Part shown: positions 8,550 through 47,872 of the stretch, piece after piece
Layout of the letters: each line of letters starts with the position of its first letter
Numbering within the stretch: the first letter of the stretch is position 1
Origin: Bolinopsis microptera
Lineage: Eukaryota; Ctenophora; Tentaculata; Lobata; Bolinopsidae
Assembly (NCBI RefSeq): GCF_026151205.1
Contig: NC_087079.1
Location: 6,668,169 to 6,732,168 of the forward strand
Length of the DNA stretch: 64,000 nucleotides
Direction: 5' to 3'
Made by a program: the position numbers and the translations under genes
The notes under the pieces: model-generated
Told to the model about the DNA's origin: nothing
The model's database searches: none
Seen by the model: only the letters and a program-made list of their open reading frames with translations

Positions 8550-11500
8550 ATGAAATGGGTGATCCTCGCACTGTTTCTCATATTTTCTAAACTTGGCCGA
8601 ATCTCAAGCAGTCAGGCATCATCAAATCATGAGCTGGTTCATCACAGTGACTCTGAAGATGTTCACAACAACATCTTCAACACTTCTTCAGACCATTTGA
8701 GAGGACTCAAACCAGAGATTAGATTGAACAGAGTTGCTCTGACACTGAATCAGAGTTTAACGAGGAATGTGGACTACCCCTCGGTGCGGGTGTACAACGG
8801 AGATCCGGCCACAGTCGGCCATATTCCTTTCATTGTGAGTATCACTATGACAACAGTATTTTAAAAGAAAGATTTTTACTCAGTTCTCGGTAAAGCTAAA
8901 TCGTGAATCGGGTGAACCCTCTACACCTCTAAGTCGGTAGAAATCAGCGTTTTGATTCCCTCCTCACATTTCAAAATTTAGTATTAAACCTTGATGACTG
9001 TGTAAAATGTGTCTCTAAATAACGAGAACAATCGACTGGCAGGTCCGTATCTACACCTACAAGAGTGGTTACCGTTACATGTGTGGCGGGTCTATCCTGT
9101 CAGAGCACTGGGTAGTAACAGCAGCGCATTGCATCCTGGACCAGGCTCAATATGAGGGTACTAACCACTCTTTTACTATCCACGGCCCTAATATCCAGGT
9201 TAGTAGACTTGTCAAGGGTTGCAGGGTGTTATAACATAATGTAGTCATAATGTAGTCATAATGTAGTCATCAAGTAGTCATAAAGTAGTCATAATGTAGT
9301 CATAAAGTAGTCATAATGTAGTCATAATGTAGTCATAAAGTAGTCATAATGTAGTCATAAAGTAGTCATGATATAGTCATAATATAGTCATAACGTAGTC
9401 ATAATGTAGTCACAAAGTAGTCATAATGTAGTCATAAATTAGTCAAAAAGTAGTCATAATGAAGTCATAAAGTAGTCATAAGGTAGTCATAAAGTAGTCA
9501 TAAAGTAGTCATAATGTAATCATAATTTGTCATAATGTAGTCATAATGTAGTCATAATGTAGTCATAAAGTAGTCATAATGTAGTCATAATGTAGTCATA
9601 AATTAGTCATAATGTAGTCATAAAGTAGTCATAAAGTAGTCATAAAGTAGTCATAATGTAGTCATAAAGTAGTCATAATGTAGTTACCTTAGTTCCCAAA
9701 AATTTGTGTGCCATTATATTGAGCACAATTTATTTGAGCCCGAAAAATTTGGGCAGAAAATTTGAACTCATTTGGGCGACCGAAAATTTGGGCACAAATT
9801 CTTCGAAAAATGAACGATTTTCCACTAAAATTTTAGATAGATATTTGCCTTACGGGTAAATGCCTCACAGAATGGCTAGCCTCACAGAATGGCCAAATTT
9901 GTAAATGTTTTTGTAACTAATTTTTTATAAAAGACTGGTAGGTTTTGTGGATACCATATGAAACAAAAGTCTTCTGGCAACACTTCCTGTGGTGAAATCA
10001 TTAACTAGGACCACATTTTCTGGCATAAATATGACTGTTTATGTAGAAATTTTGAGCACTAAAAAATTTGTTTTCAAATTTTTGAACTAAGTTTACATTT
10101 TGGTGAGAACTTCTGGCACCAGTATGACAGAAGATGTTCAAAGAATAGTATTCATCAAAAAAAACGAACATTGTTCAATATAGGAAGAAAAAAATGCTAA
10201 AATGGCTACACGCCTCACAAAATGGCCAAAATATGCCTCACAAAATTTGTTTTCAAATTTTTGAACTAAGTTTGCATTTTGGTGAGAACTTCTGGCACCA
10301 GTATGACAGAAGATGTTTAAAGAATAGTATTCATCAAACAAAACGAACATTGTTCAATTTAGGAAGAAACAAAATAATAAAATGGCTAAACGCCTCACAA
10401 AATGGCCAAAATATGCCTCACAAAATGGCCAAAATTTGAAACTCCTTTTATTCAATGAAACCATAAGTCTAAAGTATTCACAAGCTATTTATTATACAAT
10501 AACACCCCAGATGGAGTGTTTTTACAGCCGAATGAAGGTTATAAATCATGAAATCAGGGAATATGAACAACGCCACACAAAATGGCCATTTTTGGTGTAG
10601 GAAATTATGCCCTTTTTATTCAGTTCTAAGAAATTTCACCTATATGGGGGTGTTAACAAGGCATATTAATACCAGCAGCATGCCTGAAACAAGAGCCAAA
10701 GGTTTTAGAAAAATAAAATTTTCTCGTTTTCTTTTTTTTTTGCCATTTTGTCAGGCATTTTTTCTTTTTTGTGAAATAATTTTTCACAGCTCAGTTTTTT
10801 CGTGAGTTTTAGGTTATTACCCCATTCCTTAATAGGTTTTCTAAGAACGTGTGGTGATAGAAATTTAAAAAGTATCTCCATCAACAAAATTATAGAAATT
10901 CAGATTTGGCCATTCTGTGAGGCATGTTTTTTTCGAGGAAGATTTTCCGGCCAATTTTTCTCAAAGAAAAAATGGTTATGAGATTAAATGAACCCCCGGG
11001 AAGAAAAATATGAGTGTCAACTTAGCTTCTTATGAGATAAAAACTGGAATAAAGTTTGTTTTGTGACTTTGAGAGACCTTCCTTTTTTTTGGCCATTCTG
11101 TGAGGCAAATACCCGTAGTTCATTATTATTCCTTATTATTCCAGTCATTTTGCTTTCAATTTTAAGCATGTAGGTGGTAGTCTGAGTTGTTTCACATTAT
11201 GAAATTGACGATCTGCCCAGTAACTACTAAAAAATACAGTGATGATGGCACAGTACAAAATGATAGATATACATTATACAATAGTGATATTTAGTCTCTC
11301 AATCAGATAGTTTAGTCTACTTACACTCAGCATATCTTATCATACCCCTTTCACATACAATTATCATTATGACGCCTCATCAGATGGTCGAAAGCTTTGG
11401 AAGAAAATTAGAAGGTTTACATCATGATCTATCAAACTAAGCGGCACATACGCTTAGCTTTGAGGTATCCGTACCTCTAACCATTTGTTTTATTAGTAGC

Positions 11501-14500
11501 TGTTAGCTATTCCAGTTATTTCTATTCATTTAAAATATAAGCCTTTTTACTTGGTCAAGCCATGAATGACAGATTAGAAAACTAAAATTTCAAATATTAT
11601 TTCACTTGGATATTTAAAAAAAGCCATCTTTCTATAGATTTCAGGGCCACAGGCCAAATGCAAAAAGTTTGGTTAGCAAAAAATTTAGCAGACGGAAAAG
11701 ATTTATGCAATTAATTTGGTCTGCAAAATATTTGGGCGAGAGGCCCGCTCAAATTTTTTGTCGCCCAAATTTTTGGGAATTAAGGTATAATGTAGTCACA
11801 AAGTAGTCATAATGTAGTCATAAAGTAGTCATAAAGTAGTCATAATGAAGTCATAAAGTAGTCATAAGGTAGTCATAAAGTAGTCATAAAGTAGTCATAA
11901 TTTAGTCATAATGTAGTCATAATGTAGTCATAATGTAGTCATAATGTAGTCATAAAGTAGTCAAAATGTAGTCATAGTGTAGTCATAACGAAGTCATAAT
12001 GTAGTCATAAAGTAGTCATAAAGTAGTCATAAGGTAGTCATAATGTAGTCATAATGTAGTCATAAAGTAGTCATAAAGTAGTCATAAAGTAGTCATAATG
12101 TTTTCATAAAGTAGTCATAATGTAGACATAAAGTAGTCATAATGTAGTCATAAAGTAGTCATAAAGTAGTCATAATGTAGTCATAATGTAGTCATAATGT
12201 AGTCATAATGTAGTCATTATTTAGTCATAGTGTAGTTATAATGTAGTCATAATATAGTCCGAGGAGTCCTCACTCTCCTCTCGGCCTAAGATGGCGTTTC
12301 TCGTCCTAAGATGGCGTTTCTCGTCCTATATATGATTTGGGGTTTAGGTTATTCCAGACTACAAAGGGTTTAGGGTATCTATTTACAATTTAAATATGAT
12401 TTATTTACAGACGTGTTAGGGAATTTAAAATTTACAGTTTACTGAGGCTTCTGTGGTATTTTATTTGTAAAAGTTCTCCCTTTTATAATATCTAAATTTT
12501 CTGTCTGTAATATTTGAAAACTAAATTTCAAATTGCTGGCCAAGTACTGACCATTATTATACTTAATAGATAATTGCGGGGGACGTTTCAACAAGATTGT
12601 ACGAAGCATCAACAGTTGTGAAATCTGTAACCCAAGTTTATACCCACGAAAACTACAACCAGTGGTATCTCCAGGTACGAAATACTAAACTTAGCCAGGG
12701 GTGCAGGGTCAAAGGGAAACCGACCAATCTCAATCATCAGTGGTACTGTCATCATTAGCGCCACTTGAAGCTAATAGTAAATTACTACACTGTGGTTATT
12801 GTAAGGAAAGACATATTACTAAAGGAGACGATGAGACATTACACAATACTCATTACACAATACAAATTACACAATACACATGCACCGTCAGTATAATCTA
12901 TCTGCTAACTAAAAAGAGAGTAACATGAAAAGAATGCAAATCTTTGAAACGCGTGGAAACTTTAAAGGTAATGTTGGAATAAAATATGAATTGTGAAGCC
13001 CAATCAGTGTACGACTGTCAACACTGGAAAACTTGATCTACTGTTAAATATACTTCAAAGTTCAAACCTTCACCAAATATTCTTTATTTTCACATATTCA
13101 TACCGAGTGCTATAGCAACGTTTATGGAAAGGGTTACTAATGATGAATGCGGTCGGTTTGTTTCTTTTGACCTTCTACTTAATCAGCATACTCCTCTTCA
13201 TGGCCTTCACGAGAATTGATCAGCAGTTGGTCATGAACAGCTACAATTAATATTACTGTCTGCTTATTCTGCAACAATTTCACTAAAAACCATTAAAAAG
13301 GGTCCCCTACTCTTTTGATACAATTGAGAAACCCGCCACAGCTGACAATAACGTTACCCAGAGTGACATAGCACTGGTGACAATAACATTACCCAGAGTG
13401 ACATAGCACTGTTGTACATAGAGGACGGGTTTGATCTAACTTCTGCCAACATAAAGAAAATCAGTGTAGCAGATTCTCAACCAGCTGCTGGCACTCAAGT
13501 AACTATTGCAGGTATGTGTAAATCTCCTGGCTCTCCAGTAACTATTGCAGGTATGTGTAAATCTCCTGGCACTTCTTTGGTAGCTTATCTAAGGGGGCTA
13601 TACCAAAACGAAACATTGGAATGTTTCCCGTGTCCAACAACGATCAGCATCAGTAATCATTGATGAATATTATAATGAATCGCTAAATCCTTCACTTTGT
13701 TCGGGTTACAGCGGCCCTCTTTGTGCAATAAACGTTGAAACATCTGGATACAACCAAGAAGAGCACTATACAATACTGTTTATAGAATACTAGCTGTTAA
13801 TACCTGTAATCTCACTGCAGGATGGGGCACTACAATACTGTTTATAGAATACTAGCTGTTAATACCTGTAATCTCACTGCAGGATGGGGCACTACAATAC
13901 TGTTTATAGAATACTAGCTGTTAATACCTGTAATCTCACTGCAGGATGGGGCACTACAATACTGTTTATAGAATACTAACTGTTAATACCTGTAATCTCA
14001 CTGCAGGATGGGGCACTATATAATACTGTTTATAGAATACTAGCTGTTTATACCTGTAACCTCACTGCAGGATGGGGCACTATATAATACTGTTTATAGA
14101 ATACTAGCTGTTAATACCTGTAATCTCACTGCAGGATGGGGCACTACAAAACTGTTTATAGAATACTAGCTGTTAATACCTGTAATCTCACTGCAGGATG
14201 GGGCACTACAATACTGTTTATAGAATACTAGCTGTTAATACCTGTAATATCACTGCAGGATGGGGCACTACAATACTGTTTATAGAATACTAGCTGTTTA
14301 TACCTGTAATCTCACTGCAGGATGGGGCACTATACAATACTGTTTATAGAATACTAGCTGTTAATACCTGTAATCTCACTGCAGGATGGGGCACTATACA
14401 ATACTGTTTATAGAATACTAGCTGTTAATACCTGTAATCTCACTGCAGGATGGGGCACTATATAATACTGTTTATAGAATACTAGCTGTTAATACCTGTA

Positions 14501-17500
14501 ACCTCACTGCAGGATGGGGCACTATATAATACTGTTTATAGAATACTAGCTGTTTATACCTGTAATCTCACTGCAGGATGGGGAACTACAATACTGTTTA
14601 TAGAATACTAGCTGTTAATACCTGTAACCTCACTGCAGGATGGGGCACTATATAATACTGTTTATAGAATACTAGCTGTTTATACCTGTAATCTCACTGC
14701 AGGATGGGGCACGCAGGAGACGGAACTGATAGCAACAGTGCTCCAGTTTGCTAACTACACCGTCCCTGATCAGAAATACTGTCAACAGATCTACCGTCGA
14801 AAAGGGTGATTACAAGTTCTACCTTGACCGAAAAAACTTTTGAGATTATCTGTTTGATCTAAAAGATCTCATTAAGTAGTTTTGCTAGTTGATAATGGTG
14901 ATAGATAATTCCTCACTTGATTAACTATCAGGTATTACATATTACCGGGGATGTTGTGTACAGGAGATGACGAGATGACATCTCACAGTGCTATAGGGGA
15001 CAGTGGGGGACCTGTTTTCAGGGACCATGGTAACGGCAACTTCACTCTGGTAAGAGATCCGGGCAGTTATTGTACGGGGATTTATGAGCATGGTTATATA
15101 TGGGATAATTAGTTTTATATTCGAAAAGATAAATAATTTCCACCCAGGTAATTGTTGATCAATTATTCAATCAATGGACCAATTCAATCCAGCTGGAATT
15201 TCAGTACGGTTTGGTGAGTTGGGGGGTTGGGAAGAATGTTGAAACTTACGATTACGATATCAACTCTGATGTGGCCTTTTACAATCAGTGGATATTCAAC
15301 ATCATGGTACGGTGTGAATTGTTCATTTGTTCATTGTGGATTTGATTTGATTAGCGAATTATCACCGTATTCCACCAAGTTCCAACTTAGTATCAGAATT
15401 GATCAGTCTGCTTTAACTGCCATGACCATAACAGTGGCGTAACGAAACTTAACTGAGGTACTAGCAAAAATGCGCGTTTTGCTCTGGAAACACACTTTTT
15501 AAAAGATTTTACCGGCGTATCCTCTAAAATCACCCAATTTGTTCAATTTTCGGGAGGGGCACCAAAAGGGGGCGCATTTTCGGCGGGGGGAGGCGCCAAC
15601 AGGCAACGTTACGCCACTGGACCATAACACGGTTTGTTTGGGCAGTAGGATATCAATACCATTTAACCAGTAACCAACCTGAACAACAATTTTGATACCT
15701 AAGATAGTTTATGAAAAACACTTATTGTAAATAATAATTTGATGAAGGAGTAACTGTAAAACTTCAGGAGTCATACAAACAGTACCGAGTGGAGTTGCAC
15801 GCTGACACCACCACAAAGTGGTTGTCGTGGAGAAGCGGGACTGATACTTTCAGGTACCAAGTCTACAATATCTCCTGTCAATCTGGTAGATTTGTTAATG
15901 TGAGTTGTGCTGAACAATAGAAAATTATGTAAAATAGCGTTGAATCTGTTGGAATAGACTATTAAAATAAATACGGTTATGTAAGAAACTTGGTTCATTT
16001 ACAGTTTGTGCAGTCCATGGGCACGTGCCTAGCTGAACAGGTTGTGATGCACAATAATTGTTCCTAATTAGAACTTTATAAGAAGCCTCGCGCGTTCACC
16101 AGTCAAATCTGCTCTCTAGATGCTGCTACGAGCAAGAGTAGGAGTATGATAATTATATGAGTATATGTAATATAACCAACTGTTCCCAGTATTCGCATAA
16201 CGTTACATTCCACCCTGCAGGTAGTGATCACAACACTGATTCTTTCACAAGACTTTAGTAATGTTATCGTTAGAGACGGTAACCAATACGACAGTCCAAT
16301 CCTTCTCGAGCAACATCGTGACCTGGCTGAAAACCAAACTCTTAGTAAGTTTAGCTTTTGTCAAACACAAGAAAAATGCTTCGATTTTAACTCAAATATG
16401 GTACTGTAGTAGTAAACCCGCGATGGGGTGGCATGTGCCTCAATAAAAATATTACAATCATTTATTATTATATCAATTTATCGTTAAATATTTCAAAAAT
16501 ATTAATAACGTATGGTTGATCCTTCACACTTGGTAAAATATATAAAAATAAAGTTAATCTACACTAAAGAATAAATAATCTATATTATATAAATCAACAA
16601 TATTAACTCCCCATCTTCTTGTAGTCATTTATCAAAGCGGTAGAAATCCAAGTAATTTTAGTACGCGGTGCGCAAGGAATTTCGTTTTTAAAAAATGTGT
16701 AGGCAAGATAAGCCTAAGTGTGGCAGTGAAAATTGAAAAATAAGTTGCAGAATAAATTGCAGTGTCTGACTGTCAAATGCATTATCGCAGTTCATTTATT
16801 TGACTGCACTAACGTTTAGGATTCTTACAGCTGTTATATTTTGCTAATATTTTGTTTAAAAGTTGTAAAGGACAAAGTTCTTGTCCGTCCACGAAAGGTT
16901 TTCTAGGTCAAGTTTTTGTTTGTCCTGTAAGTAACGTACAATGTTGTCCTTGTATGAATGAATAAACTTATCTTGTAGCTTAGGTACGTTGAAGGGAAGG
17001 ATTTTGTTTATTTCGTTTATCGTGTTGTTATATAATCGTGGTCCTACGTTAGAGATGCTATAATCGGTGATCCGTAATCTGTTGAACTTAATTTCAAAAT
17101 ACTTTGGATTTCTCCTTTCCGTTTGTCTAAGCGGTGATTTTTCAAATATACTACAGATACTCGATGGTGCTACTCCCATATAAACCTTGTGCATCAAAGT
17201 TAGACAGCTTTTAGCAATGAGATTAGGAAGAGCTAAAATTCCTATTTTGTTGAAGATGGATTTTGTGTGAGATGGTAGTTTACGTTTTTCTTTGTCGTAA
17301 AAATAGTTATGATATTCTGAATCAGTGGCGCGAATAGCTTTCTTTTGAGCAGAGAATAAAGACTGAATAGAATTTAAAGATTTAGTACCCCAAACAGTAG
17401 CGCAGTAATACAGGTGAGATTGAATTAAACTATTGTATAGCATTTACAATAGTACTGGGAAAGCGTCATTACCACTTTTTCCTCATAAATCACTATTTAT

Positions 17501-20632: not shown

Positions 20633-23600
20633 ATGATGAATGTTAAATCACAGATTCGACTGACTCTAATATTGATTGCAGGTATGTTTCTGCTTAAAAA
20701 TGTTATGATTTGCTTGTTCTAATTACAATTAGCAGGATTCACAAATCTAACCTTTGATTTTAACCAATTCTATGACCCTTCTATGTCCCAACTTTATTCC
20801 TTGCAATGACCCTCACTCTATATCGTTAATCTTTAATAATGACAAATCTTAAAATATTGAGATGCATCTTTAAAAAATTCGAAACTGTAGTCAGAGTCGC
20901 ATATTACACTAAAATATCCACGCAGCTGTCGCTGTCGCTAAAGGGAGTGGTCAGGACTCTTGCGGTTCTGGAACCTTCTTTAACGGAGGGAACTGTGAGG
21001 ATTGCCCCAAGGGTCAGTACCAGGTAAAACATTGCAGTTTGAGGCAATTTTGTGGGGTTTTTTTGCTATTCAATGTTACTTGAATCTGGAGCATCGTTTC
21101 ATTGGAACAATGTTACTTTGTTCGTCAAATTATTTAAACTTGATTAAAACGTTTTGAGATATTATTCTTTTTCGATCCAATAAAATTGGATGAGTTGATC
21201 GCAACTGTTGTTACGACTCAGGCTGTAGTTATAAAGTTATAACCATGTTCCAACTGCCATATCATAAAGTAAAAGTCCACTCTTTCAGCCAGACAGTGGT
21301 CAAACGAGTTGTTTTAATTGTAAAAAAGGAACACACCAACATTTACCGGGACAGACAAGTAAATTTACTGTAGAACACTCTGATAATGAGTTCAGCAAGT
21401 CATCTTTGCTTTTATAACTTAGCTTATATCTTTCAAGTCTGGATCTTTTTCGTTTCTATCTCATCATTTGAACAATTAAGGTGCAAATGCTGTAAGTTTT
21501 AAAGTTAATAGAATTGTTTTTGTTTTAATGATGAAGGTCTGAGATTAAGATTGTTATTATTGTTGTTTGTAATTTAAGATTCCTCGACAATTCTCTTATG
21601 TTTTGATGAATTGAAATTTATGGCGATCGTTTAATCCTTATCTCATCTAATTCCGCACCATTTATACGGTATAAAATCTAACACCTACTCAGAGTCGGTT
21701 ATACGTTGCTTTAGTAACCACGAACTTTGTCTCCTCTCACTAGGCTGTAACGATTGTCCGGTGGGTTGGATGGCTGGAGCTGAGGGATTGAAGGCCTGCT
21801 CAGAATGTCCTCCAGGTACGATCATAACACAATTAATGCTTACGTCATCAGGGTTGCTTACGTCATCAGGGTTGCTTACGTCATCAGGGTTGCTTACGTC
21901 ATCAGGGTTGCTTACGTCATCAGGGTTGGCATTGCTATTTAAGCTTGTCAACTAGTAAGCGGTTCCTTCTTGTTTTCTTCTTTTGACAATTTCCGAGATG
22001 TAATTTGCATTTAATTCTTTGAATAAAACAGTTTGATAACGCACGTATTACAAAATAATAACAACATACATTGGTAGGCACGCACTCAAATAATACTAAA
22101 GCAGTAGATTGTCCTGGATGTGAACCTGGTACTTACAACAACTCTACTGGAAAAGAAAGTTGCGACCTTTGTCCACGTGGAAAATACCAGGTACTATTAG
22201 TATTAGAGTATTAGCTTATTAGTAAAATAAACCATTCTTTTTTCTCTACAAATACGACACTTTCTGTACAAAACTTCATCAAGCCTGCGATATTGACATT
22301 CGCGCGATTTTCAAAGCTACATCTTCATCAAGCGATTGTTCCATTTCCGTTTAACGACAAAGTTATAGTTCATTAAACACGCAAGCACATTCCTACCACA
22401 ATGTATAATAACCATGGTAACATTCCTACCATAATGATCACCTAATTCCTCAGGTAACCTAAAGTAACCTAAAGTAACCTAAAGTAACCTAAAGTAACCT
22501 AAAGTAACCTAAAGTAACCTAAAGTAACCTAAAGTAACCTAAAGTAACCTAAAGTAACCTAAAGTAACCTAAAGTAACCTAAAGTAACCTAAAGTAACCT
22601 AAAGTAACCTAAAGTAACCTAAAGTAACCTAAAGTAACCTAAAGTAACCTAAAGTAACCTAAAGTAACCTAAAGTAACCTAAAGTAACCTAAAGTAACCT
22701 AAAGTAACCTAAAGTAACCTAAAGTAACCTAAAGTAACCTAAAGTAACCTAAAGTAACCTAAAGTAACCTAAAGTAACCTAAAGTAACCTAAAGTAACCT
22801 AAAGTAACCTAAAGTAACCTAAAGTAACCTAAAGTAACCTAAAGTAACCTAAAGTAACCTAAAGTAACCTAAAGTAACCTAAAGTAACCTAAAGTAACCT
22901 AAAGTAACCTAAAGTAACCTAAAGTAACCTAAAGTAACCTAAAGTAACCTAAAGTAACCTAAAGTAACCTAAAGTAACCTAAAGTAACCTAAAGTAACCT
23001 AAAGTAACCTAAAGTAACCTAAAGTAACCTAAAGTAACCTAAAGTAACCTAAAGTAACCTAAAGTAACCTAAAGTAACCTAAAGTAACCTAAAGTAACCT
23101 AAAGTAAGTATCTTCCCCAGGACAATACAGATGAGGTGGAGTGTAAGAGATGCCCTGATGGGCAATATAACGACCAGGAAGGTAAAGCATCCTGTAAACC
23201 CTGTTCTTGGACTCTAAGTGCTGACCGTTCTACTTGCTACTGCCCACCAGGTTTATTTGGTTAACCTTCATAGTAGGATCCCAATTTCAACAAAAATTCA
23301 TTCTTTATCATGTTAATCTATTATCTTTTGAATGATTTTATTTGACATACTAGATTCTTAGCAACCTGAGAAATCTGAAAATATCGTCAATCCAGGTACC
23401 TACAAAGACGGATCAGTTTGTTCGTACTGTCCACCAGGAACCTACCAAAACAGGACTGACGCAGACAGATGTGTGAGCTGCCCGGCTGGCTATTACCAGC
23501 AGTCTAATACTTCAGTACAGTGTGAGCCATGTGGTCAGGGCAGTCACCAGATGAAAAGTGGGGAGGTCACCTGTTTGGATTGTGGGCTGGGGTTCTATCA

Positions 23601-31409: not shown

Positions 31410-33362
31410 CCTGTTGTGTAACAAGCCTGAAGTCCTCAGGTAACATTGTGTTACAGACCTGAATTCCTCAGGTAACGTTGTGTTACAGGCCTGAAGTCCT
31501 CAAGTAACGTTGTGCTGCAAGCCTGAAGTCCTCAGGTAACGTTGTGTTACAAGCCTGAAGTCCTCAGGTAACGTTGTGATACAAGCCTGAAGTCCTCAGG
31601 TAACGTTGTGTTACAAGCCTGAAGTCCTCAGGTAACGTTGTGTTACAAGCCTGAAGTCCTCAGGTAACGTTGTGTTACAAGCCTGAAGTTCTCAAGTAAC
31701 GTTGTGTTACAGGCCTGAAGTCCTCAGGTAACGTTGTGTTACAAGCCTGAAGTCCTCAGGTAACATTGTGTTACAGGCCTGAAGTCCTCAGGTAACGTTG
31801 TGTTACAAGCCTAAGGTCATCAGGTAACGTTGTGTTATAAGCCTAAGGTCATCAGGTAACGTTGTGTTACAATCCTGAAGTCCTCAGGTAACGTTGTGTT
31901 ACAGGCCTGAAGTCCTCAGGTAACATTGTGTTACAAGCCTAAGGTCATCAGGTAACGTTGTGTTACAAGCCTAAGGTCATCAGGTAACGTTGTGTTACAA
32001 GCCTGAAGTCCCCATGTAACGCTGTGTTACAAGCCTGAAGTCCTCAGGTTACATTGTGTTACAAGCCTAAGGTCATCAGGTAACGTTGTGTTACAAGCCT
32101 AAGGTCATCAGGTAACGTTGTGTTACAAGCCTGAAGTCCTCAGGTAACATTGTGTTACAAGCCTGAAGTCCTCAGGTAACGTTGTGTTACAAGCCTGAAG
32201 TCCTCAGGTAACGTTGTGTTACAGGCCTGAAGTCATCAGGTAACGTTGTGTTACAAGCCTGAAGTCCTCAGGTAACGTTGTGTTACAGGCCTGAAGTCAT
32301 CAGGTAACGTTGTGTTACAGGCCTGAAGTCATCAGGTAACTTTGTGTTACAGGCCTGAAGTCATCAGGTAACGTTGTGTTACAGGCCTGAAGTCCTCAGG
32401 TAACGTTGTGTTACAAGCCTGAAGTCCTCAGGTAACGTTGTGTTACAGGCCTGAAGTCCTCAAGTAACGTTGTGTTACAAGCCTGAAGTCCTCAGGTAAC
32501 GTTGTGTTACAAGCCTAAGGTCATCGGGTAACGTTGTGATACAAGCCTGAAGTCCTCAGGTAACGCTGTGTTACAAGCCTGAAGTCCTCAGGTAACGTTG
32601 TGTTACAGGCCTCAAGTCCTCAGGTAACGTTGTGTTACAAGCCTGAAGTCCTCAGGTAACGTTGTGTTACAGGCCTGAAGTCCTCAAGTAACGTTGTGTT
32701 ACAAGCCTGAAGTCCTCAGGTAACGTTGTGTTACAAGCCTAAGGTCATCAGGTAACGTTGTGATACAAGCCTGAAGTCCTCAGGTAACGCTGTGTTACAA
32801 GCCTGAAGTCCTCAGGTAACGTTGTGTTACAGGCCTGAAGTCCTCAAGTAACCCTGTGTTACAGGCCTGAAGTCCTCAGGTAACGTTGTGCTACAAGCCT
32901 GAAGTCCTCAGGTAACGTTGTGTTACAAGCCTGAAGTCATCAGGTAACGTTGTGTTACAAGCCTGAAGTCCTCAGGTAACGTTGTGTTACAAGCCTGAAG
33001 TCCTCAGGTAACGTTGTGTGACAAGCCTAAGGTCATCAGGTAACGTTGTGTTACAGGCCTGAAGTCCTCAGGTAACATTGTGTTACAAGCCTGAAGTCCT
33101 CAGGTAACGTTGTGTTACAAGCCCGAAGTCCCCATGTAACGTTGTGTTACAGGCCTGAAGTCCTCAGGTAACGTTGTGTTACAAGCCTGAAGTCCTCAGG
33201 TAACGTGTGATACAAGCCTGAAGTCCCCATGTAACGTTGTGTTACAGGCCTGAAGTCCCCATGTAACGTTGTGTTACAAGCCTGAAGTCCTCAGGTAACG
33301 TTGTGTTACAAGCCTGAAGTCCTCAGGTAACGTTGTGTTACAAGCCTGAAGTCCTCAGATAA
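31410..33362. repeat. 32-bp satellite array, about 60 units
   Basis: Consensus unit GTAACGTTGTGTTAC followed by AAGCCTGAAGTCCTCAG. The first half is an imperfect palindrome (GTAAC...GTTAC). Variant units carry AAGCCTAAGGTCATCAG or AGGCCTGAAGTC, and CCCCATGTAAC variants occur near 32010, 33128, 33227 and 33255. The variants recur in clusters, which suggests higher-order homogenisation. There are no unique spacers. Confidence 0.97.
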
Positions 33363-35995
33363 CACTGTCTGACCAGTTAGACGAGACAAAATCACGACAG
33401 AAATGAATATAAAGGCCATTGCCTCTAAACCACAACGTCGCCGTCTGCTCTACATCAAGCTCTTATCCTCTTGTAAACATATTAAGCCAGATTTGAAATT
33501 GAATAACTTAGGCTACTCTAACCGACTAGTCATACCATTTACAGGATCCCGACCGGCTACTTAATTATTTCGTTCTTTACTCAAGCATACGCGGATTTAC
33601 GTTTACCATTTTAAATATGAATAACATATTACTACATATTATTATACATTATATGGCATATATATATTATATGGCAGTGCCTCGAGTTTTCGTTTTTAAT
33701 TTTATAATTATCTAACGTTTGTATGGTTTGTTGTTCATTTACTTTGTATCACTTGGTTATTTATTAAAATTGAGTGCAGTATAAGATCAAGATATGGTGA
33801 AGACTGAAGATGTCTAGTAAAATGGTGTATTAATGAACTAAGTAGTAAAGTAAGTAAGTAAGTAAAGAGTCATTCAACTTAATTAGCTTGAATCAGAAAA
33901 TTTAATTGAATAAAACTGTTAATAGGGTGGACATATTCCCAGGGCCTAAAAATATTTAACTTCACCTGGGCGTCCACGACTTTTGTCTGTGATTACTACT
34001 CCTTAGTCCTTTCATTACATAATCACTGTACCGTGCAAACCGTTTGCACAAAATTAGCCTGCATAAACGACACTGTTTAAACGACACTGTTTAAACGACA
34101 CTGTTTAAACGACACTGTTTCGTCATTCTGCCCAATATATCAGTGAAACGCCATGCAATTCACGTACCACTAACCTTCATTATTTCGTTTTAGGTCGCCG
34201 ATGATTTACCCCTGCATGCTGCAGACTCAATTATACAAATATTTGTGTCCTCTATTTATGTAATAAAGCTTTCCATAAGAGCCGTGCACCGAGACTGCAT
34301 TTAGATGGGCGCAGCGGCGGTTTGGAACTTTTACTTAATCACTCGCTCAGTACAGATTAATCATATCTTGTGAAAGGGGCCTGAGGGTATAATAAATGTA
34401 GCTTTATTTTCGATATATTTTATTATCCTGATTCCGAATCACCCCTAAGGCCCCTTTAGTGTTACATTATAATTTGTAAGCAATGAAATTAAGTAAAAAA
34501 AACCCCTTAAATCTTCCAACTTTATGTTTTTAATCTGACATCGTTTCAAAAACCAGCGGCGCGGTGGCTGAACAAAGACATGCTGTTAGAAGGACCACTT
34601 ATTGAATATTTAGTTATTGATGACTTCAAAGAAAGACGTGCATGAGTCAAACGACAAGACATCATTTCTGACTTCCGCGTTAACTTAGCTTCAGTTAAAT
34701 GGTAATTGATTTATTTTGTCCCGGCTCTTTTAACACAGTCTTTTAGCCCAGCCGAAGTAATCAGTATTATGATTGTTAAGAAAATTTACTTTTTTAATCA
34801 GCAATATCAGAGCCCAGAGGTATACTGATTAGTATGTTGTAGCTTTGCTCTAATATCAAATATAAAAGATTTCTTGTGAGAGTGGCAGCAACATTCTTTC
34901 ATCAAACTTTTCCAGTTTTCCTGGGAAAAGTTTACAAAAGTAAACCTTTACCTTTGCTTTCATTATAACGAGGATACTTTCTCTAAATTATGTACAATTA
35001 ATTATTAAGTGACCATATTAATGCCTCTGCAACCGTGCGTCCGTGTCAACCGTGTTATACTAGGCAACTGTTTCATGTGCGTTAACCGTACGTCATTTTG
35101 CAGGTTGCAAAGCTGGCGTTAGGGCTTTAGGGGTAGTAGTAAAACTATAAAAGATCCGGTCAGTCAACCCTTCCCATACTATTGTTCTTAAAAAGATCCT
35201 TTATCTACGCATTTGAAAATGGAGACAGTGAAGAAGTCAGTTTGTTAAGTAAAGCCCTGATTCATGTTTCAGTCTGAAGAATTGTTATTTTGCCACCCCA
35301 CACCACGTACTAGAATATTTACTTTTAGTAATTTGGGTCGATATCAAAATTCAAAATAGTTGTATTCGCACTCAAATTTTACTTGACATACGTTGCATGC
35401 CACTTTTCGCGCGCGAAACGTGTATCAATTTTACGGACAGACTGAACACGACAACCCTTGATCTACATACGAATACTGCGACATTCGTGTGACAAAAGTC
35501 TGCCCCAAAGTTGCATAGTGAAGTTTTCACTCTTCTAATTAAATAAATATCGATCCCTGCGTGTCCTGCGTGCTTCTAAATTGTAAATTTATCCCAAAGT
35601 TGTGCACAATTTACTGGAATGTTACAGACAAAGTGATGTCTTCACTTTATTCTAGATGAATTCTTTCATTAAAATTGCGGATTGTTTCTGAAAAGTTGCG
35701 GATTGTTTCTGAAAGGACTTTATTCAGAAACAATCAGAAATTTGAATGAAAGAAACATCAAATCATGAAACTCAATAGACTCAGTTTATTCTACTTCTAT
35801 AAATACAATTTTATAAAATTAAAACGTAGTACGTGTCATTTGATTTTATTCCCTGGTTGCTCTAGTGAGCTTTATGGTCGGAAATGGAAAATGTATAACA
35901 TCGACACCACGTACCGTACCATTACACATTATTAAGCAATGTTAGTCTCGTAGTTGATTGCCATGGGTTGTATAGTCTTTCAGATTTTTCAGGGA
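33363..35995. other. Intergenic region with a small 15-bp repeat
   Basis: No gene is recognised. A 15-bp repeat (AAACGACACTGTTTA, about four copies) lies at 34063-34120. A duplicated phrase GTTGCGGATTGTTTCTGAAA lies around 35675-35715. Confidence 0.5.
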
Positions 35996-41637: not shown

Positions 41638-44600
41638 ATGACAATGTTCCACGAGATACAGAACCTGTTCTCATTCGGAACACTACGTCTATCGGAGAAC
41701 TCTCAGACTCAGCTGGTACGAGAACTACCATCTAGATCTAAAAGTCCCGACTTTGATCACGATAACTGCCAGATCTTCATGGAGCCGAGCAGGTCGAGGC
41801 GGCAACTGATGGGAGGGGCTGTGCATACCAAACAGAGACACATGCGAGAGTCAGTGATAAGCCTGATCGGTCATCAGCCTGGTATGGCAACTAGTTGTGG
41901 CAATGATCACAATTTAGGTAAGCCTTGATTAATCATATTTATCGTGTACAAAGTACAAACCAATTAAAAAGTATTATTATATACTTTATGATTTCTTCAT
42001 TTTTGGTCATTTATTAAATTACAATTTTTTTACACAATTTACTCTAATTCTAAATGATTCTAAATATTGAGCAATCCATGTGTTCATTTGACCCAACATC
42101 GCACATATTTATCATCTAAAGATCTAATCAAGGAGGATTAGTCAACACTGTCTTTCATAAATACCAACTTGACAATGCGAAGAGACACCCAATCCCATAT
42201 TAAATTATCATGAAATTATAAAATGAACTTATCATAACATTATTTATCATAAATTATCATATTATGAAATTATTGTATTATTAAATCATAATACTATTTA
42301 TTATGAAATTATGATGTAATGAAACTGCCATATAGTGCTTTAAGGCATTAACTGAAATCCCAGATCATTAAATACAAACCGTTATAAATTTAAGGTTCTG
42401 ACCTTCCTACTACCTAATGTCCTTATTGGTAAACACATGATGCGGCATAACAGTAAGTTTTAAAAGTCAGTCTATATGGTAACCGTTTAATATTAATAAG
42501 ATGTAGAAAATAGTCGGCTCACCTCATGATATGAAAAAAAGTATGTTGAAACTTAAATGGCAACGTGGCTAGAATTTATTAGTGAATTCAACATTTATTG
42601 GACTTGATACCAAGATGAAATTAGAAAAGGAAAAGGATTCAGACAGCAGTAGCTGCAACTTAAACTTACCAATCTTCAGATTTTCCCAGTACGATAAGCG
42701 AAACTCTTTCCTTAAACCAAGTATCGACAACAACGGAAGTTGCTGGAGCAGGAAAATCGCATTCAGAAAAAAAGATACTTATCAACGTATCCGGGAGAAA
42801 GTTTTTAATTTATCGCAGCTATTTGGAAAGGTACTAAAACTGTTATGAAAATATGAAAACTTTAACTGTTTCCATTCTAACTAGATACTGCTGCATACTT
42901 GTTACTTTTGTTTTTGGAGTAATAGCTTTAAAGTCAACTTGACTCAAACTGTAGAGTAATCGGAAATGGACCAATCAAAAATATCGAACTCTGATGATAT
43001 CCCAAAAATATTAATATTGGTAAATAACTAGCCTGATGATCAGGTACCCAAAGACGCTGCTCGGATCGGCTGACCTAGATAAACACTACGACACACATTA
43101 CGGGGACTACTTCTTCGACACAAACCAGGAGGCCTTTGAGAGTATCTTTGATTTTTACCTCTACGGAAAACTCTACCAACCAGCGTCTATACCCAGCGAA
43201 ATGTTTGAGGTAAACAAAGAGGGTGTGCTTAATTTGGATGCTGCATTATTGCAACTCTTCACAATTTTAATAGGTAAGGTAAGTATATTACTCGTTTGTC
43301 TAAGTTGCTTCTCAATCTCAATTGTAAACGCTTTAACACGCTTATTATGAACACTGTCTTCAGGATTCGTTAGAATATTTCCGGATGGTGTCTGTGATTA
43401 AAGAAGCTGAAGCTCAAGAAAAACAAAAGGAGAAAAGCAAGGTACACTCACATACAATTGCAAAGACTTGCTTAGGGCGAATCAGACAGCAAATTGATAA
43501 TGCATTTAAAAATCCCAGCTGCAGCAAAGCTGGTCTTATCTATGGATGGGTTGACATCGCTTGTATCATCCTTTCAATCATACTTATGATCAGTGAGACT
43601 GACCCTAAAATAGATGTAATGTTAATGGACAAAACTTTGAAAATCACTAAAATATGGGCTTCTTTGGAATTGGCAACAATCATCTTTTTTACATTTGACG
43701 TCCTACTAAGATTCGTAGTAACCTACGGAAAGTTCGAATTTGTCAAAAGCCCAGGGACATGGCTGGACCTCTTCACAATTCTCCCTTTCTTCCTCGAGGT
43801 ACTTGTAGATGTAGCGCATTTTGGGTCGATAAAAGTTTTGAGAGTAGCCAGGATCGCCCGAATCTTGAAACTGATTAAGAGGAACAAAAGATTATTGCTG
43901 ATGGTGACTGTTCTGTCAAGATCTATGGGTGAGCTGAGCATGCTGTTTATTGTGTGGAGTATGTGTATTGTTGTGGCTGGGATGAGCCTCTACTTCATCG
44001 AGGAAACGGACAATTCTGCAGATATCAAATCAGGTAAATTAGTAATGTCACCATTCGTGATATTGTAACGCGGTTAAATTTTAAGATTTTAATTCCAGTT
44101 TAATTCTAGTTTAATTCCAGTTTAATTCCAGTTTAATTCCATTCTCTTTTATAGCGCAGTTATTTGTTTTGCTCTACGTGGGCCGATTTAATTTCTTAAA
44201 TGGGAACGTGCTGCTACACAGCTACATGTTTAATACATGTCATTATATTTTACTCTTAACCAAACTTATGTTTTTATAAAATTTGATATATTTAAGTTTC
44301 TTATTAATATTTATTTTTACGTATCACTATTGTGGCTGACGGAGCTGGAAAATCTTAACCCTGTCAAACTGGTTGTATACCCTGTTTACTGGATTTTTTT
44401 GTGAGAAGTTGATTAAACATTAAATATTTATTCTCAGGGTTTCACGGCATTTGGTGGGCTGTAGTTACTTTAAGCACTGTCGGATACGGTGATATAGTAC
44501 CTGTAAGTATGTATTTATACTTATTTCTGATAATTTATTACTGTTAAAAAACCTTTAAAAATACTTACGTGGTGAATTACCGATGAATGAGCTAATATAC

Positions 44601-44920
44601 ACACATGCGTAAATAATATATATATATATACACATATACATATACAATATACATACATAATATGTTCATATCTCATTTCCCAGAATTCAACGCAAGGCAA
44701 GCTGTTCGGGTCCGTGTTTGTGTACGTAAGCATGATCTTCATGGCTCTGCCTTTAACAATCATTGTGGGGGCATTCAGCAAACAATATGAGTCAAAAACG
44801 TGCCTGAAATTGAAAGAAACTCAATCAGAAGCAGACCTCAATCTTCGAGTTGAAAATGAAGCAGACCTCAATCTTCGAGTTGAAAATGAGCAGCTGATGG
44901 AAGTGATCATTCAAGTTTAG
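41638..44920 (+). CDS. Voltage-gated potassium channel subunit, possibly electrically silent (six exons)
   Basis: Exons 41638-41917, 42680-42830, 43044-43278, 43364-44033, 44438-44502 and 44684-44920 join in phase to 545 aa. The N-terminal T1 domain begins ILINVSGRKFLIYRSYLERYPKT split across exons 2 and 3, and contains YFFDTNQEAFESIFDFYLYG. S1-S5 lie in exon 4. S4 reads KVLRVARIARILKLIKR, so the voltage-sensing charges are present. Exon 5 encodes the pore and the selectivity filter TVGYGD. Exon 6 encodes S6 with MALPLTIIVGAF, where most Kv channels have PVP or PIP; Thr replaces the second Pro. A C-terminal 10-residue unit (EADLNLRVEN) is directly duplicated. The start is the first ATG in frame, in the context CAAAATGA. 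The loss of PxP resembles modulatory Kv subunits that work only in heteromers, which is inference. Confidence 0.9.
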
Positions 44921-46189
44921 AAATAGCTGAGACACATTTAAAAATTTTTATTGTACTTTCCATTTTTGTCATTAATTTTTAATTTATTTGTGATTGAGTC
45001 AATAAAAGTGGTTACAGAGTTTTTGAATAAAGCGGTAAATAATGGAAAATAACCGAAATAGGGCCAATACGTGAGTATACAGCGGACAGTGGATAAAACA
45101 CAGGTTCTGAGAGATATTTTAATTTGGGTGAAATGCAGTTCAAAAACTGATTGTTTGTTGAGTTTCATAGCACGATCCCGACATTAGATGCTTTACACAC
45201 AGCTTTTTTGTAGAACACACTCTAATGTAAATTTACCAGACCCCCTCCCCAATTCAAATTCGGATTGTCTTTAGTAATAATAACAGTTGAAAGACGCAAA
45301 TCTTTATTTCTCAAGTTTAATACATAGCGATATAATACAATCGTATAAGTGAGCACTAAATCATTAAATTTAATCACTAAATCATTCTGGGATTTGATGT
45401 ATAGCTTTAAGAGTAACAAATGAATTTCTTTAAAGATCTGTTCTTCTGCAGCTCGCTTTAGTTCTTGATAATCAAGTTATAATTATATATTTTGTTAAAT
45501 CTAAAAATATAGTTAAACATATGTAACGATAAAAATTAAGAAGAATTAAAGAACATGCTCTTGAATGCAATGTCAATCTTTAAAATGACGACCTGTTTAA
45601 ACTTGGAGCGGTTTTAACCTATAACAGTTCAACATTAAAGTGGCAAAGTGACTAGCCTACTTTCGGACTATTCAAAAATCACGTCTCATAATATCATGTT
45701 AAAGTATAAAGTTGTGTAAATTAATTGTACAGAATGTAGATTAATTAAGCAGCACGGAAATAGTTAATACCACAGTATTACTATTAGTTACATAGTAGCC
45801 CTAGTAGTTACATACAGAAATTCGTGACTTATTACCGCCGTGGCCTTAAAGAGTCATAGTATATTACAATATCAGCAAGTAACCATGACTGTAAGGTGCG
45901 CATTAAAACAAAACGTTGGCTCCAATTTGCTATTTCGGCACCATCTTTTAATTAAATGTTATGCTCCCAAGACTAAGTCTTATGATCAGTCCACTATATT
46001 ATTGCATTTCTTGATTTACTCCGTTTAGGCAGTCGAGTTATTATTAAAATAATCCATATCATGTACAATTCAGGGTATAACATAACAATCAGATTTTAAT
46101 AAAAATGTACATTGCATCTCATTGTATTTATAATGTTTATACTACTTCAGTTACCCCTAATAAACGCAGAAGTCCTAATAAAATCCCAA
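44921..46189. other. Intergenic region between the convergent Kv and apextrin-C-like genes
   Basis: No gene is recognised. It holds the 3' flank of the Kv gene. Confidence 0.45.
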
Positions 46190-46563
46190 CTGTGCTCTCT
46201 GGCTGTGTGCCGACTGTGCTCTCTGGCTGTGTGCCAACTGTGCCATGGCTGTGTGCCAACTGTGCCCTGGCTGTGTGCCAACTGTGCCCTGGCTGTGTGC
46301 CAACTGTGCCCTGGCTGTGTGCCAACTGTACCCTAGCTGTGTGCCTACTGTGCCCTGGCTGTGTGCCAACTGTGCCCTGGCTGTGTGCCAACTGTGCCCT
46401 GGCTGTGTGCCAACTGTGCCCTGGCTGTGTGCCAACTGTACCCTAGCTGTGTGCCTACTGTGCCCTGGCTGTGTGCCAACTGTGCCCTGGCTGTGTGCCA
46501 ACTGTGCCCTGGCTGTGTGCCAACTGTGCCCTGGCTGTGTGCCAACTGTACCCTGGCTGTGTG
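46190..46563. repeat. 22-bp minisatellite abutting the apextrin-C-like stop codon
   Basis: About 17 units of CTGTGCCCTGGCTGTGTGCC plus AA, with some CTGTACCCTAGC variants. The unit is not a multiple of three and has no stop codon in any frame on either strand, which creates several spurious cysteine-rich open frames. It ends two bases from the stop codon of the minus-strand gene, so it forms the start of that gene's 3'UTR. Confidence 0.95.
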
Positions 46564-46565
46564 CT

Positions 46566-47872
46566 CTACTTACAACAAGACGTTATAATGATGTCAACGT
46601 TCCAGTAGTTAATACTGCGTGAACAGCCACTATTGCACCCTATACTGCTGTCTCCAAATGTCACTGCTTTTGTATACCCGTTATTAGCGTATGTCCAAAT
46701 AGCCTTAGACCACCCCTGATACCTTGTGAATCCCTCGGGGCAACTACCCCCACTTCCTAGTATACAATAAGATCCCTCTGGCCAAGAGATTTCCTCAACC
46801 TTCGCTAAAACGTCGCTTATTTCGGAACTGGTATCTGTTTTCACTCCTGCTATTGTCTGCTTTAATTCGATCTCCAAACTTTTCATATCTGTTTTGGTAT
46901 CGTTTTTATACGAAGCTATATCAGTCAATTTTACTTTCAGCTCCTCAATGTCCGTTTTCGTTCCGTTGATGGTCTTATTTCGTTCCACTTCTAGAATCTC
47001 GATCTTAGCATAAAGATCGCTAGAGTTCCTTTTCTGGTGTGCTTGCTCCTCTTCTAAAATCTCGATCTTAGCAGAAAGATCGCTCCTCAGTCCCGCAATT
47101 ACTTTCCTAGTTCCATTTATGGTCTTATTTTGTTCCACTTCTAAAACCTCGATCTTAGCATAAAGATCGCTCCTCAGTCCCGCAATTACCTTTCTAGTCC
47201 CATTTATGGTCTTATTTTGTTCCACTTCTAAAATCTCGATCTTAGCAGAAAGATCGCTAGAGTTCCTTTTCTGGTCTGCTTGCTCCTCTTCTAAAATCTC
47301 GATCTTAGCAGAAAGATCGTTCCTCAGTCCCTCAATTTCCGTTTTAGTTTCATTAAGGTTATCATATTCTTCAATCTTGCCCTCTAGCTTGTTGATTGTG
47401 CTCAGTAACTTCTTATTTTCTGCCTTTGATTCGTCTAGCTCGGTCCTAATGGCGACTATCTTATCTGCTTGGTCTGTCACTAGTTGCGTAAGTCGGGCGT
47501 TACTGAGTATACTCGATGCTAATAATATGTCCTGAAGAATGTCATGTTTTAATACATCTCTTGCAGATAAAATGCAAAATAATACTCAGTACCCATAAAC
47601 TTAAATGTAAAGTTTGTTTTTGTGTTGGGCGGGAAATCATCTGTTGTTCAGAAAAACAAAAATTCCACTATCAACTTATGTGTATCAGCATAAGTTTGCG
47701 TTATTCTATGAAAGTATGAATATGATACCGGATACAAATTCAACAATTTCAACTGTAAAATCCTACTATAAATTACTCACCGACTCTGCTGACGTCTGAG
47801 AGCTTTTACTCCTCCGAATAGAGCGGACAGAATAAGAATAACACAGGAAAGTACATTGGCATTGATACCCAT
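46566..47872 (-). CDS. Secreted coiled-coil protein with apextrin-C-like (ApeC) domain (two exons)
   Basis: Exon 1 (47781-47872) encodes a signal peptide (MGINANVLSCVILILSALFG). Exon 2 (46566-47502) encodes the rest, for 342 aa in total. The acceptor at 47503 was chosen because it keeps phase; the stronger-looking AG at 47532 would give a stop. A coiled coil of about 220 residues consists of near-identical repeats such as SAKIEILEVEQNKTINGT, with several NKT/NGT/NSS glycosylation sequons. The C-terminal 75 residues (SWPEGSYCILGSGGSCPEGF ... IIITSCCK) have the W-P-G-YCI, CPxGF and final CC pattern of ApeC domains, which in other animals occur in secreted apextrin-type proteins. A matrix or defence role is inferred from the family only. 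The domain lacks the acidic WDDED core, so it is divergent. Confidence 0.75.

What the first reader, a model, noticed from the sequence alone, without database searches (positions are those of the whole stretch)
13764..14711. A splice acceptor and the first bases of its exon are amplified about 15 times
Each 62-64-bp unit carries the intron 4 acceptor plus ten bases of the protease exon 5 (G|GATGGGGCAC). All upstream copies are plausible decoy acceptors that lead to early stops; only the last continues into GWGT coding sequence. The spliceosome must choose the distal copy of 15 near-identical sites, or the gene pays a cost in non-productive mRNA. Array length could tune expression.
Basis: partly seen in the sequence, partly recalled or inferred. 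Interest (0 to 1): 0.82.

Follow-up and report, generated by a model that had tools for sequence, protein, structure and literature searches.

The report
Splice-site minisatellite in a comb-jelly protease
In a protease gene of what is probably a comb jelly, the signal that marks the end of an intron has been copied 15 times in a row; such splice-site repeats were known as 'mirages' in lancelets, and this genome holds several, which makes it a natural test of how cells choose the right splice site.

Summary
At 13763-14712, 15 tandem 62-64-bp units each carry CTGCAG|GATGGGG, the intron 4 acceptor plus the first bases of exon 5 of a trypsin-type protease gene. Joined to exon 4, the 14 upstream acceptors stop within 5-11 codons; only the last reads through. 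By a matrix from 39 introns of the same genome, decoys score 8.0-9.6 against 8.9 for the productive copy, and units 13 and 15 are letter-identical, so local upstream sequence cannot mark the right copy.

Two more junction-spanning duplications lie in this gene: the exon 4 acceptor (35 bp x2) and donor (39 bp x2.2). The genome, probably a ctenophore's, holds others: a dynein heavy-chain donor copied 12 times, only the first giving an open join, and two smaller ones.

This kind is known: amphioxus 'mirages', reported not to disturb splicing (PMC3087553, PMC3902484, passages read). Junctions were not hit more often than intron positions (1 of 78 against 99 of 1131), so random minisatellite birth is likeliest. 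Decoy use and tuning by array length remain untested. New member of a known kind, apparently in a new phylum.

The parts
8784..8834 (+). End of exon 1: VRVYNGDPATVGHIPFI, trypsin activation-type N terminus, donor ATT|GTGAGT; left end of the exon not determined
   Evidence: (aligns to VKIYNGDDAVEGEFPFM of paralog L013)
9037..9198 (+). Exon 2 with catalytic His (VVTAAHC); exact acceptor not determined; donor CCAG|GTTAGT
12609..12674 (+). 3' part of exon 3 (STVVKSVTQVYTHENYNQWYLQ), donor CAG|GTACGA, phase 0; its acceptor not determined
   Evidence: gapless with paralogs
13343..13411 (+). 35-bp x2 tandem duplication spanning the exon 4 acceptor; exon starts at 13362 (frameshift and stop) and 13397 (in frame, SDIALL)
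13397..13511 (+). Exon 4 with catalytic Asp (SDIALLYIEDG...VTIA)
13488..13573 (+). 39-bp x2.2 tandem duplication spanning the exon 4 donor; donors at 13512 and 13551, both in frame (the second adds 13 residues)
13512..14702 (+). Intron 4 (1191 nt), containing the array in its 3' part
13763..14712 (+). Array of 15 units of 62-64 bp, each with acceptor CTGCAG|GATGGGG plus exon-like bases; GCAC at both ends
14703..14805 (+). Exon 5 proper (GWGTQETEL...YRRKG), reached in frame only from the 15th acceptor; weak donor GG|GTGATT
14932..15049 (+). Exon 6 with catalytic Ser (GDSGGPVF)
15205..15306 (+). Exon 7 (YGLVSWGVGK...NQWIFNIM), end of the trypsin domain; start chosen by alignment to paralogs, but this acceptor scores below all 39 reference introns (1.1), and a start near 15149 (CACCCAG) is also open

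Best explanation
The array is a 'mirage': a minisatellite born when a short stretch straddling the intron 4/exon 5 junction was tandemly duplicated between two GCAC tetramers, one in the intron and one ending at the tenth base of exon 5, and then expanded to 15 units by unequal exchange or slippage. Shown: anatomy, GCAC at both ends, near-identity of units, a stop after every upstream acceptor. Inferred: in transcripts that make the protease, exon 4 is joined to the last copy because only that acceptor lies next to the body of exon 5 and its donor, so exon definition favours the shortest exon (103 nt against 167-985 nt for decoys); transcripts using a decoy carry an early stop and are lost. 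The array is most likely a tolerated by-product of a minisatellite-rich genome, not a dedicated regulator.
For: 15 units and exact junctions. GCAC at both ends. There are 60 combinations (2 exon 4 acceptors x 2 donors x 15); 5 of the 15 units were read with each of the four exon 4 versions, and all 15 with one of them: open only with exon 4 acceptor copy 2 and unit 15, with either donor. The gene keeps His, Asp and Ser exons, a hand-joined protein matches Pfam Trypsin at 4.1e-22, and the exon 3/4 and 4/5 joins align without gaps to paralogs. Junction repeats also sit in dynein genes: donor x12, donor of an 18-bp repeat with four CAG|GT copies, donor 55 bp x2. In the x12 case only copy 1, next to the exon body, leaves the join open; copies 2-12 stop. 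Arrays were not concentrated at junctions: 1 of 78 splice sites against 99 of 1131 intron positions. Amphioxus mirages are reported not to disturb splicing.
Against: No transcript data: neither use of the last copy nor loss of decoy transcripts was seen. Exon definition is not demonstrated in this organism; the exon 5 donor is weak (8th percentile of 39) while the exon 4 donor is stronger than all 39, and a nearest-AG or first-transcribed rule would predict decoy use. The exon 4 acceptor copy needed for an open frame scores only 4.8 (21st percentile). That the 'right' copy lies next to the exon body follows partly by construction. GCAC is four bases only, so the microhomology origin could be coincidence.
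Confidence: 0.72

Rival explanations
1. The array is a working brake: nascent RNA is often spliced to one of 14 decoys, the mRNA is destroyed, and the number of units sets protease output.
For: All 14 decoys score like real acceptors (59th-79th percentile of 39), all give stops within 5-11 codons, and the productive one has no local advantage (units 13 and 15 identical).
Against: No RNA evidence; the closest precedent reports undisturbed splicing. The acceptor core is invariant, but with seven substitution columns in about 62, none falling in the last 15 is not surprising (my arithmetic, about 0.14), so there is no sign that decoys are selectively kept.
Confidence: 0.15
2. The gene is a decaying pseudogene, freed from constraint, in which splice junctions are being scrambled by tandem duplications.
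For: Three of 11 tested splice sites of this gene are duplicated, one duplication breaks the frame if the wrong copy is used, and two of its acceptors score at or below the weak end of real ones (4.8 and 1.1). Paralogs whose protease domain reads almost without introns exist.
Against: Exons 3-7 read through without stop or frameshift when the exon-proximal copies are used, and the catalytic exons and GT-AG sites are intact. The same kind of array sits in dynein heavy-chain genes whose neighbouring exons read open. Selection could not be measured.
Confidence: 0.1
3. Assembly artefact expanded or collapsed the array.
For: Tandem arrays are error-prone in assemblies; the amphioxus authors note an aberrantly assembled mirage.
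Against: Units differ at seven substitution columns plus an indel and are not a simple block copy; arrays of the same type exist elsewhere in the assembly. The copy number itself could not be verified.
Confidence: 0.03

Closest known systems
Amphioxus 'mirage' minisatellites (Adh3, globins BflGb6 and BflGb9, TnC, PGBD5)
   Same: Tandem repeats spanning an intron/exon boundary, acceptor or donor side; otherwise regular gene structure. BflGb6 repeats the 3' end of an intron plus the 5' part of the exon, as here (passages of PMC3087553 and PMC3902484).
   Different: Here 15 units of 62-64 bp against 6 and 3 units of 150-160 bp in the two BflGb6 haplotypes; probably a ctenophore, not a cephalochordate; three junctions of one gene affected; no RT-PCR here.
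Human IFI6 (6-16/G1P3) minisatellite giving multiple splice donor sites
   Same: A minisatellite supplies several copies of a splice site at one exon end (a sentence and a reference title seen in PMC4526556).
   Different: Donor, not acceptor; repeat copies are used to make different mRNAs there. The original paper (Turri 1995) is not held and was not read.
Intron gain by tandem duplication of AG|GT sites (Rogers model; internal tandem repeats in human segmental duplications)
   Same: Tandem duplication across splice signals changes the number of possible junctions (passages of PMC2812944; model described in PMC3087553).
   Different: No new intron is evident here; in the two units scored, no internal GT looks like a donor (best -1.4 against a minimum of 2.4 in 39 real donors).

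Membership tests
Mirage minisatellite | Tandem repeat whose unit spans an exon-intron boundary | tested here: met
Mirage minisatellite | Several units contain the AG or GT splice signal | tested here: met
   15 of 15 units have CTGCAG|G
Mirage minisatellite | Regular splicing undisturbed | not testable with these tools
   no RNA available; only frame analysis
Mirage minisatellite | Length instability between alleles or tissues | not testable with these tools
   one assembly, one copy of the locus found; unit variants suggest past exchange
Mirage minisatellite | Found in cephalochordates (the range given in the passages read) | tested here: not met
   contig sizes and a best PDB match to ML032222a iGluR, up to 75% identity, point to a ctenophore; range is not a mechanistic criterion
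S1 trypsin-type serine protease (host gene) | Pfam PF00089 match and His/Asp/Ser motifs | tested here: met
   4.1e-22, 79.5 bits against a cut-off of 20.6, for a hand-joined protein; TAAHC, SDIALL, GDSGGP

The most novel reading that the evidence does not exclude
In this ctenophore, splice-junction minisatellites are a recurrent genome-wide feature, and the spliceosome copes by always taking the copy that gives the shortest exon: the last of repeated acceptors, the first of repeated donors. Array length would then set a variable fraction of mis-spliced RNA, making copy number a heritable dial on gene output.
Probability: 0.15. Interest if true: 0.7.

Novelty: new member of a known kind. Interest (0 to 1): 0.45.

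Why it matters
Fifteen acceptors of about equal local strength, of which only one makes protein, and a mirror case of twelve donors in a dynein gene, separate position and exon context from splice-site strength. Counting junctions in RNA would show directly whether nearest-AG, first-transcribed or exon-definition rules decide. It also carries a phenomenon described in lancelets to what is probably a ctenophore, a lineage that PMC10232365 (title and abstract start) places as sister to other animals.

Tried and rejected
Coding repeat: rejected, each upstream acceptor meets a stop within 5-11 codons. Units as microexons: not supported, GTs in the two units scored (13821-13944) give -3.5 to -1.4 against a minimum of 2.4 for 39 real donors. 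Dispersed repeat or satellite: not supported, the array sequence matched only this place. Targeting of minisatellites to splice sites: not supported; 1 of 78 solved sites duplicated against 99 of 1131 intron and 14 of 1175 exon positions (by its bins 46 of those 99 lie in the one dynein array at C2), and 3 of 11 sites of the trypsin gene against 231 of 770 positions of its own region and 380 of 3190 of the window.

Limits of the survey: of 73 myosin and 67 dynein match rows, 48 and 60 were put in. Neighbouring pairs gave 44 solved and 21 unsolved introns; 39 of the 44 were kept. Splice sites were picked with consensus weights that I wrote from memory, so the matrices lean to consensus. Mirages can hide in unsolved pairs: of the three dynein ones only the x12 is among the 78 sites; the 18-bp one was spotted from its repeat row and the 55-bp one from the edge scan, where 8 of 198 match edges were flagged. 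Of those 8 I read three as donor mirages and two as arrays that reach an acceptor without copying its AG (C8:10877606, C1:12745211); one is a 17-bp x2.3 repeat just before an acceptor (C9:11996713), one lies about 95 nt from its exon (C3:9157378), and one AT-rich repeat at an exon end (C2:20663295) was seen only as a repeat row. The 72-bp x3 array with TTCTTTCAG at L035 2836-3058 could not be tied to a myosin exon.

Paper searches: and 34 for the organism. No title or abstract start shown was about junction minisatellites in ctenophores; one search showed 12 of 453 papers and one search showed 15 of 114, and only open-licence papers are searched, so this is no proof of absence.

Full report
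The finding is real. The array occupies 13763-14712, and direct search gives 15 copies of CTGCAG|GATGGGG. Full units are 62 or 64 bp; their alignment shows seven substitution columns and one 2-bp indel. The last 15 columns, which hold the acceptor and the exon bases before the GCAC, do not vary; with so few variable columns this is no sign of selection (my estimate, about 0.14). The array matched only this place in the assembly.

The host is a trypsin-type protease gene on the + strand. A hand-joined protein from its exons matches Pfam Trypsin at 4.1e-22. The His exon is near 9037-9198, the Asp exon 13397-13511 and the Ser exon 14932-15049. The four best paralog matches, on contigs C7 and C8, are 35-40% identical; the eight paralog loci inspected read across the intron 4 position without an intron. 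Alignment to paralogs places the exon 3/4 and exon 4/5 joins without gaps, which puts the exon 4 start at CAG|AGTGAC and the exon 5 start at A|GWGT. The exon 7 start is less sure: the chosen acceptor scores below all 39 reference introns, and an upstream start is also open.

Three splice junctions of this gene lie in tandem duplications. A 35-bp unit repeats the exon 4 acceptor twice: the first copy shifts the frame to a stop, the second is in frame. A 39-bp unit repeats the exon 4 donor twice: both are in frame, the second adding 13 residues. The 15-unit array repeats the exon 5 acceptor. With exon 4 acceptor copy 2 and donor 1, acceptors 1-14 stop after 5, 9 or 11 codons and acceptor 15 is open. 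Of the 20 combinations printed across both exon 4 acceptors, both donors and five units, 2 are open, both with acceptor copy 2 and unit 15.

What could mark the right copy? A matrix trained on 39 myosin and dynein introns of the same genome gives the productive acceptor 8.9; the 14 decoys score 8.0 to 9.6, and the median reference acceptor 7.1. Units 13 and 15 are identical. The information must therefore lie downstream, in exon 5 and its donor, or in position. The exon 5 donor is weak (8th percentile) and the exon 4 donor very strong, which are points against a simple exon-definition account.

Origin. The first unit begins at GCAC after GA, and the last ends with the exon's GGGGCAC, so a duplication between two GCAC tetramers would explain the unit's limits. 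The 39-bp unit is likewise bounded by CTGGCACT in exon and intron. These are readings of the sequence, not tests.

Organism. The window lies in a 264.65-Mb assembly of 232 contigs. The sizes of 12 contigs, C1-C13 without C4, were seen and sum to 241.7 Mb; C4's length was not seen. A glutamate-receptor ORF (L026) has ML032222a iGluR as its best solved relative, and other loci reach 72-75% identity to that chain; that ML denotes Mnemiopsis leidyi is recalled. PMC10232365 (passages) gives 13 chromosome-scale scaffolds and about 254 Mb for the ctenophore Bolinopsis microptera; PMC11797021 (abstract start in a listing) gives 247.97 Mb and a karyotype of 13 for Mnemiopsis. A ctenophore is likely; the species is not determined.

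Elsewhere in the genome. I surveyed myosin-head and dynein AAA_6 genes in part. A dynein heavy-chain donor, RPVAMTLPDFGLIIE|GTTAGT, is repeated 12 times (C2:21035794-21036560); copy 1 gives an open join with the next exon, copies 2-12 all meet a stop. Another dynein exon ends in an 18-bp repeat with four CAG|GT copies (C1, about 13076600-13076682). A third has its donor in a 55-bp unit x2 (C1:12745770-12745879). So the trypsin array is not alone in kind. The counts do not show targeting: 1 of 78 solved sites duplicated against 99 of 1131 intron positions and 14 of 1175 exon positions; 46 of the 99 lie in the one C2 array, and introns with mirages may be among the 21 unsolved pairs. In the trypsin gene 3 of 11 sites are duplicated, but so are 231 of 770 positions of the region. 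The likeliest account is a minisatellite-rich genome (54 repeat rows in 64 kb, some overlapping) in which some arrays land on junctions.

Comparison with the known. PMC3087553 (passages) describes amphioxus 'mirages', minisatellite-like repeats of intron/exon boundaries, including a repeated 3' intron end plus exon start in globin BflGb6, with 6 and 3 units in two haplotypes, and says that Adh3 and globin RT-PCR data suggest regular splicing is not disturbed. PMC3902484 (passage) adds PGBD5 and cites Adh and TnC. The original Adh paper (PMC117041) is not held. The present array meets the anatomical criteria; splicing and length variation could not be tested.

Judgement. I hold the tolerated-mirage reading most likely (0.72), the brake possible (0.15), a pseudogene less so (0.10), an artefact unlikely (0.03). 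The value of the case is as a clean natural experiment on splice-site choice and as an apparent extension of mirages to ctenophores.

Noticed in passing
L051/L057, contig C2:21035794-21036560: Dynein heavy-chain exon donor repeated 12 times in 62-65-bp units; only copy 1 gives an open join to the next exon.
   Followed up: yes
L048 2312-2394, contig C1 about 13076600-13076682: Dynein exon end in an 18-bp repeat with four CAG|GT copies (donor mirage).
   Followed up: partly
L063, contig C1:12745770-12745879: Dynein exon end duplicated as a 55-bp unit including its donor CATTAG|GT.
   Followed up: partly
L035 2836-3058, contig C11:11964838-11965060: 72-bp x3 array with a strong-looking acceptor TTCTTTCAG in a myosin locus; no exon could be assigned.
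   Followed up: partly
L061 (C8:10877304-10877605) and L063 (C1:12745072-12745204): Minisatellites that run up to an acceptor without copying its AG, as if supplying its upstream tract.
   Followed up: partly
window 15445-15620: Dispersed repeat of about 175 bp after exon 7; 39 other matches of that length at 82-92% identity listed in the assembly, from a capped list (40 of 1679 candidates scored).
   Followed up: no
window 31413-33363: 32-bp x61 minisatellite; 22454-23107 is a perfect 10-bp x65 array.
   Followed up: no
window 46186-46564: 22-bp array (17 copies) that ends two bases from the end of a 339-aa minus-strand open frame (46566-47585).
   Followed up: no
window 44828-44893 and 44088-44141: Potassium-channel-like gene with an in-frame 30-bp duplication in its last coding part and an intronic 11-bp TTTAATTCCAG x4.9 repeat.
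   Followed up: no
L013 (contig C8): Paralogous trypsin-type protein with a long EDDK tandem repeat between protease domain and C-terminal part.
   Followed up: no
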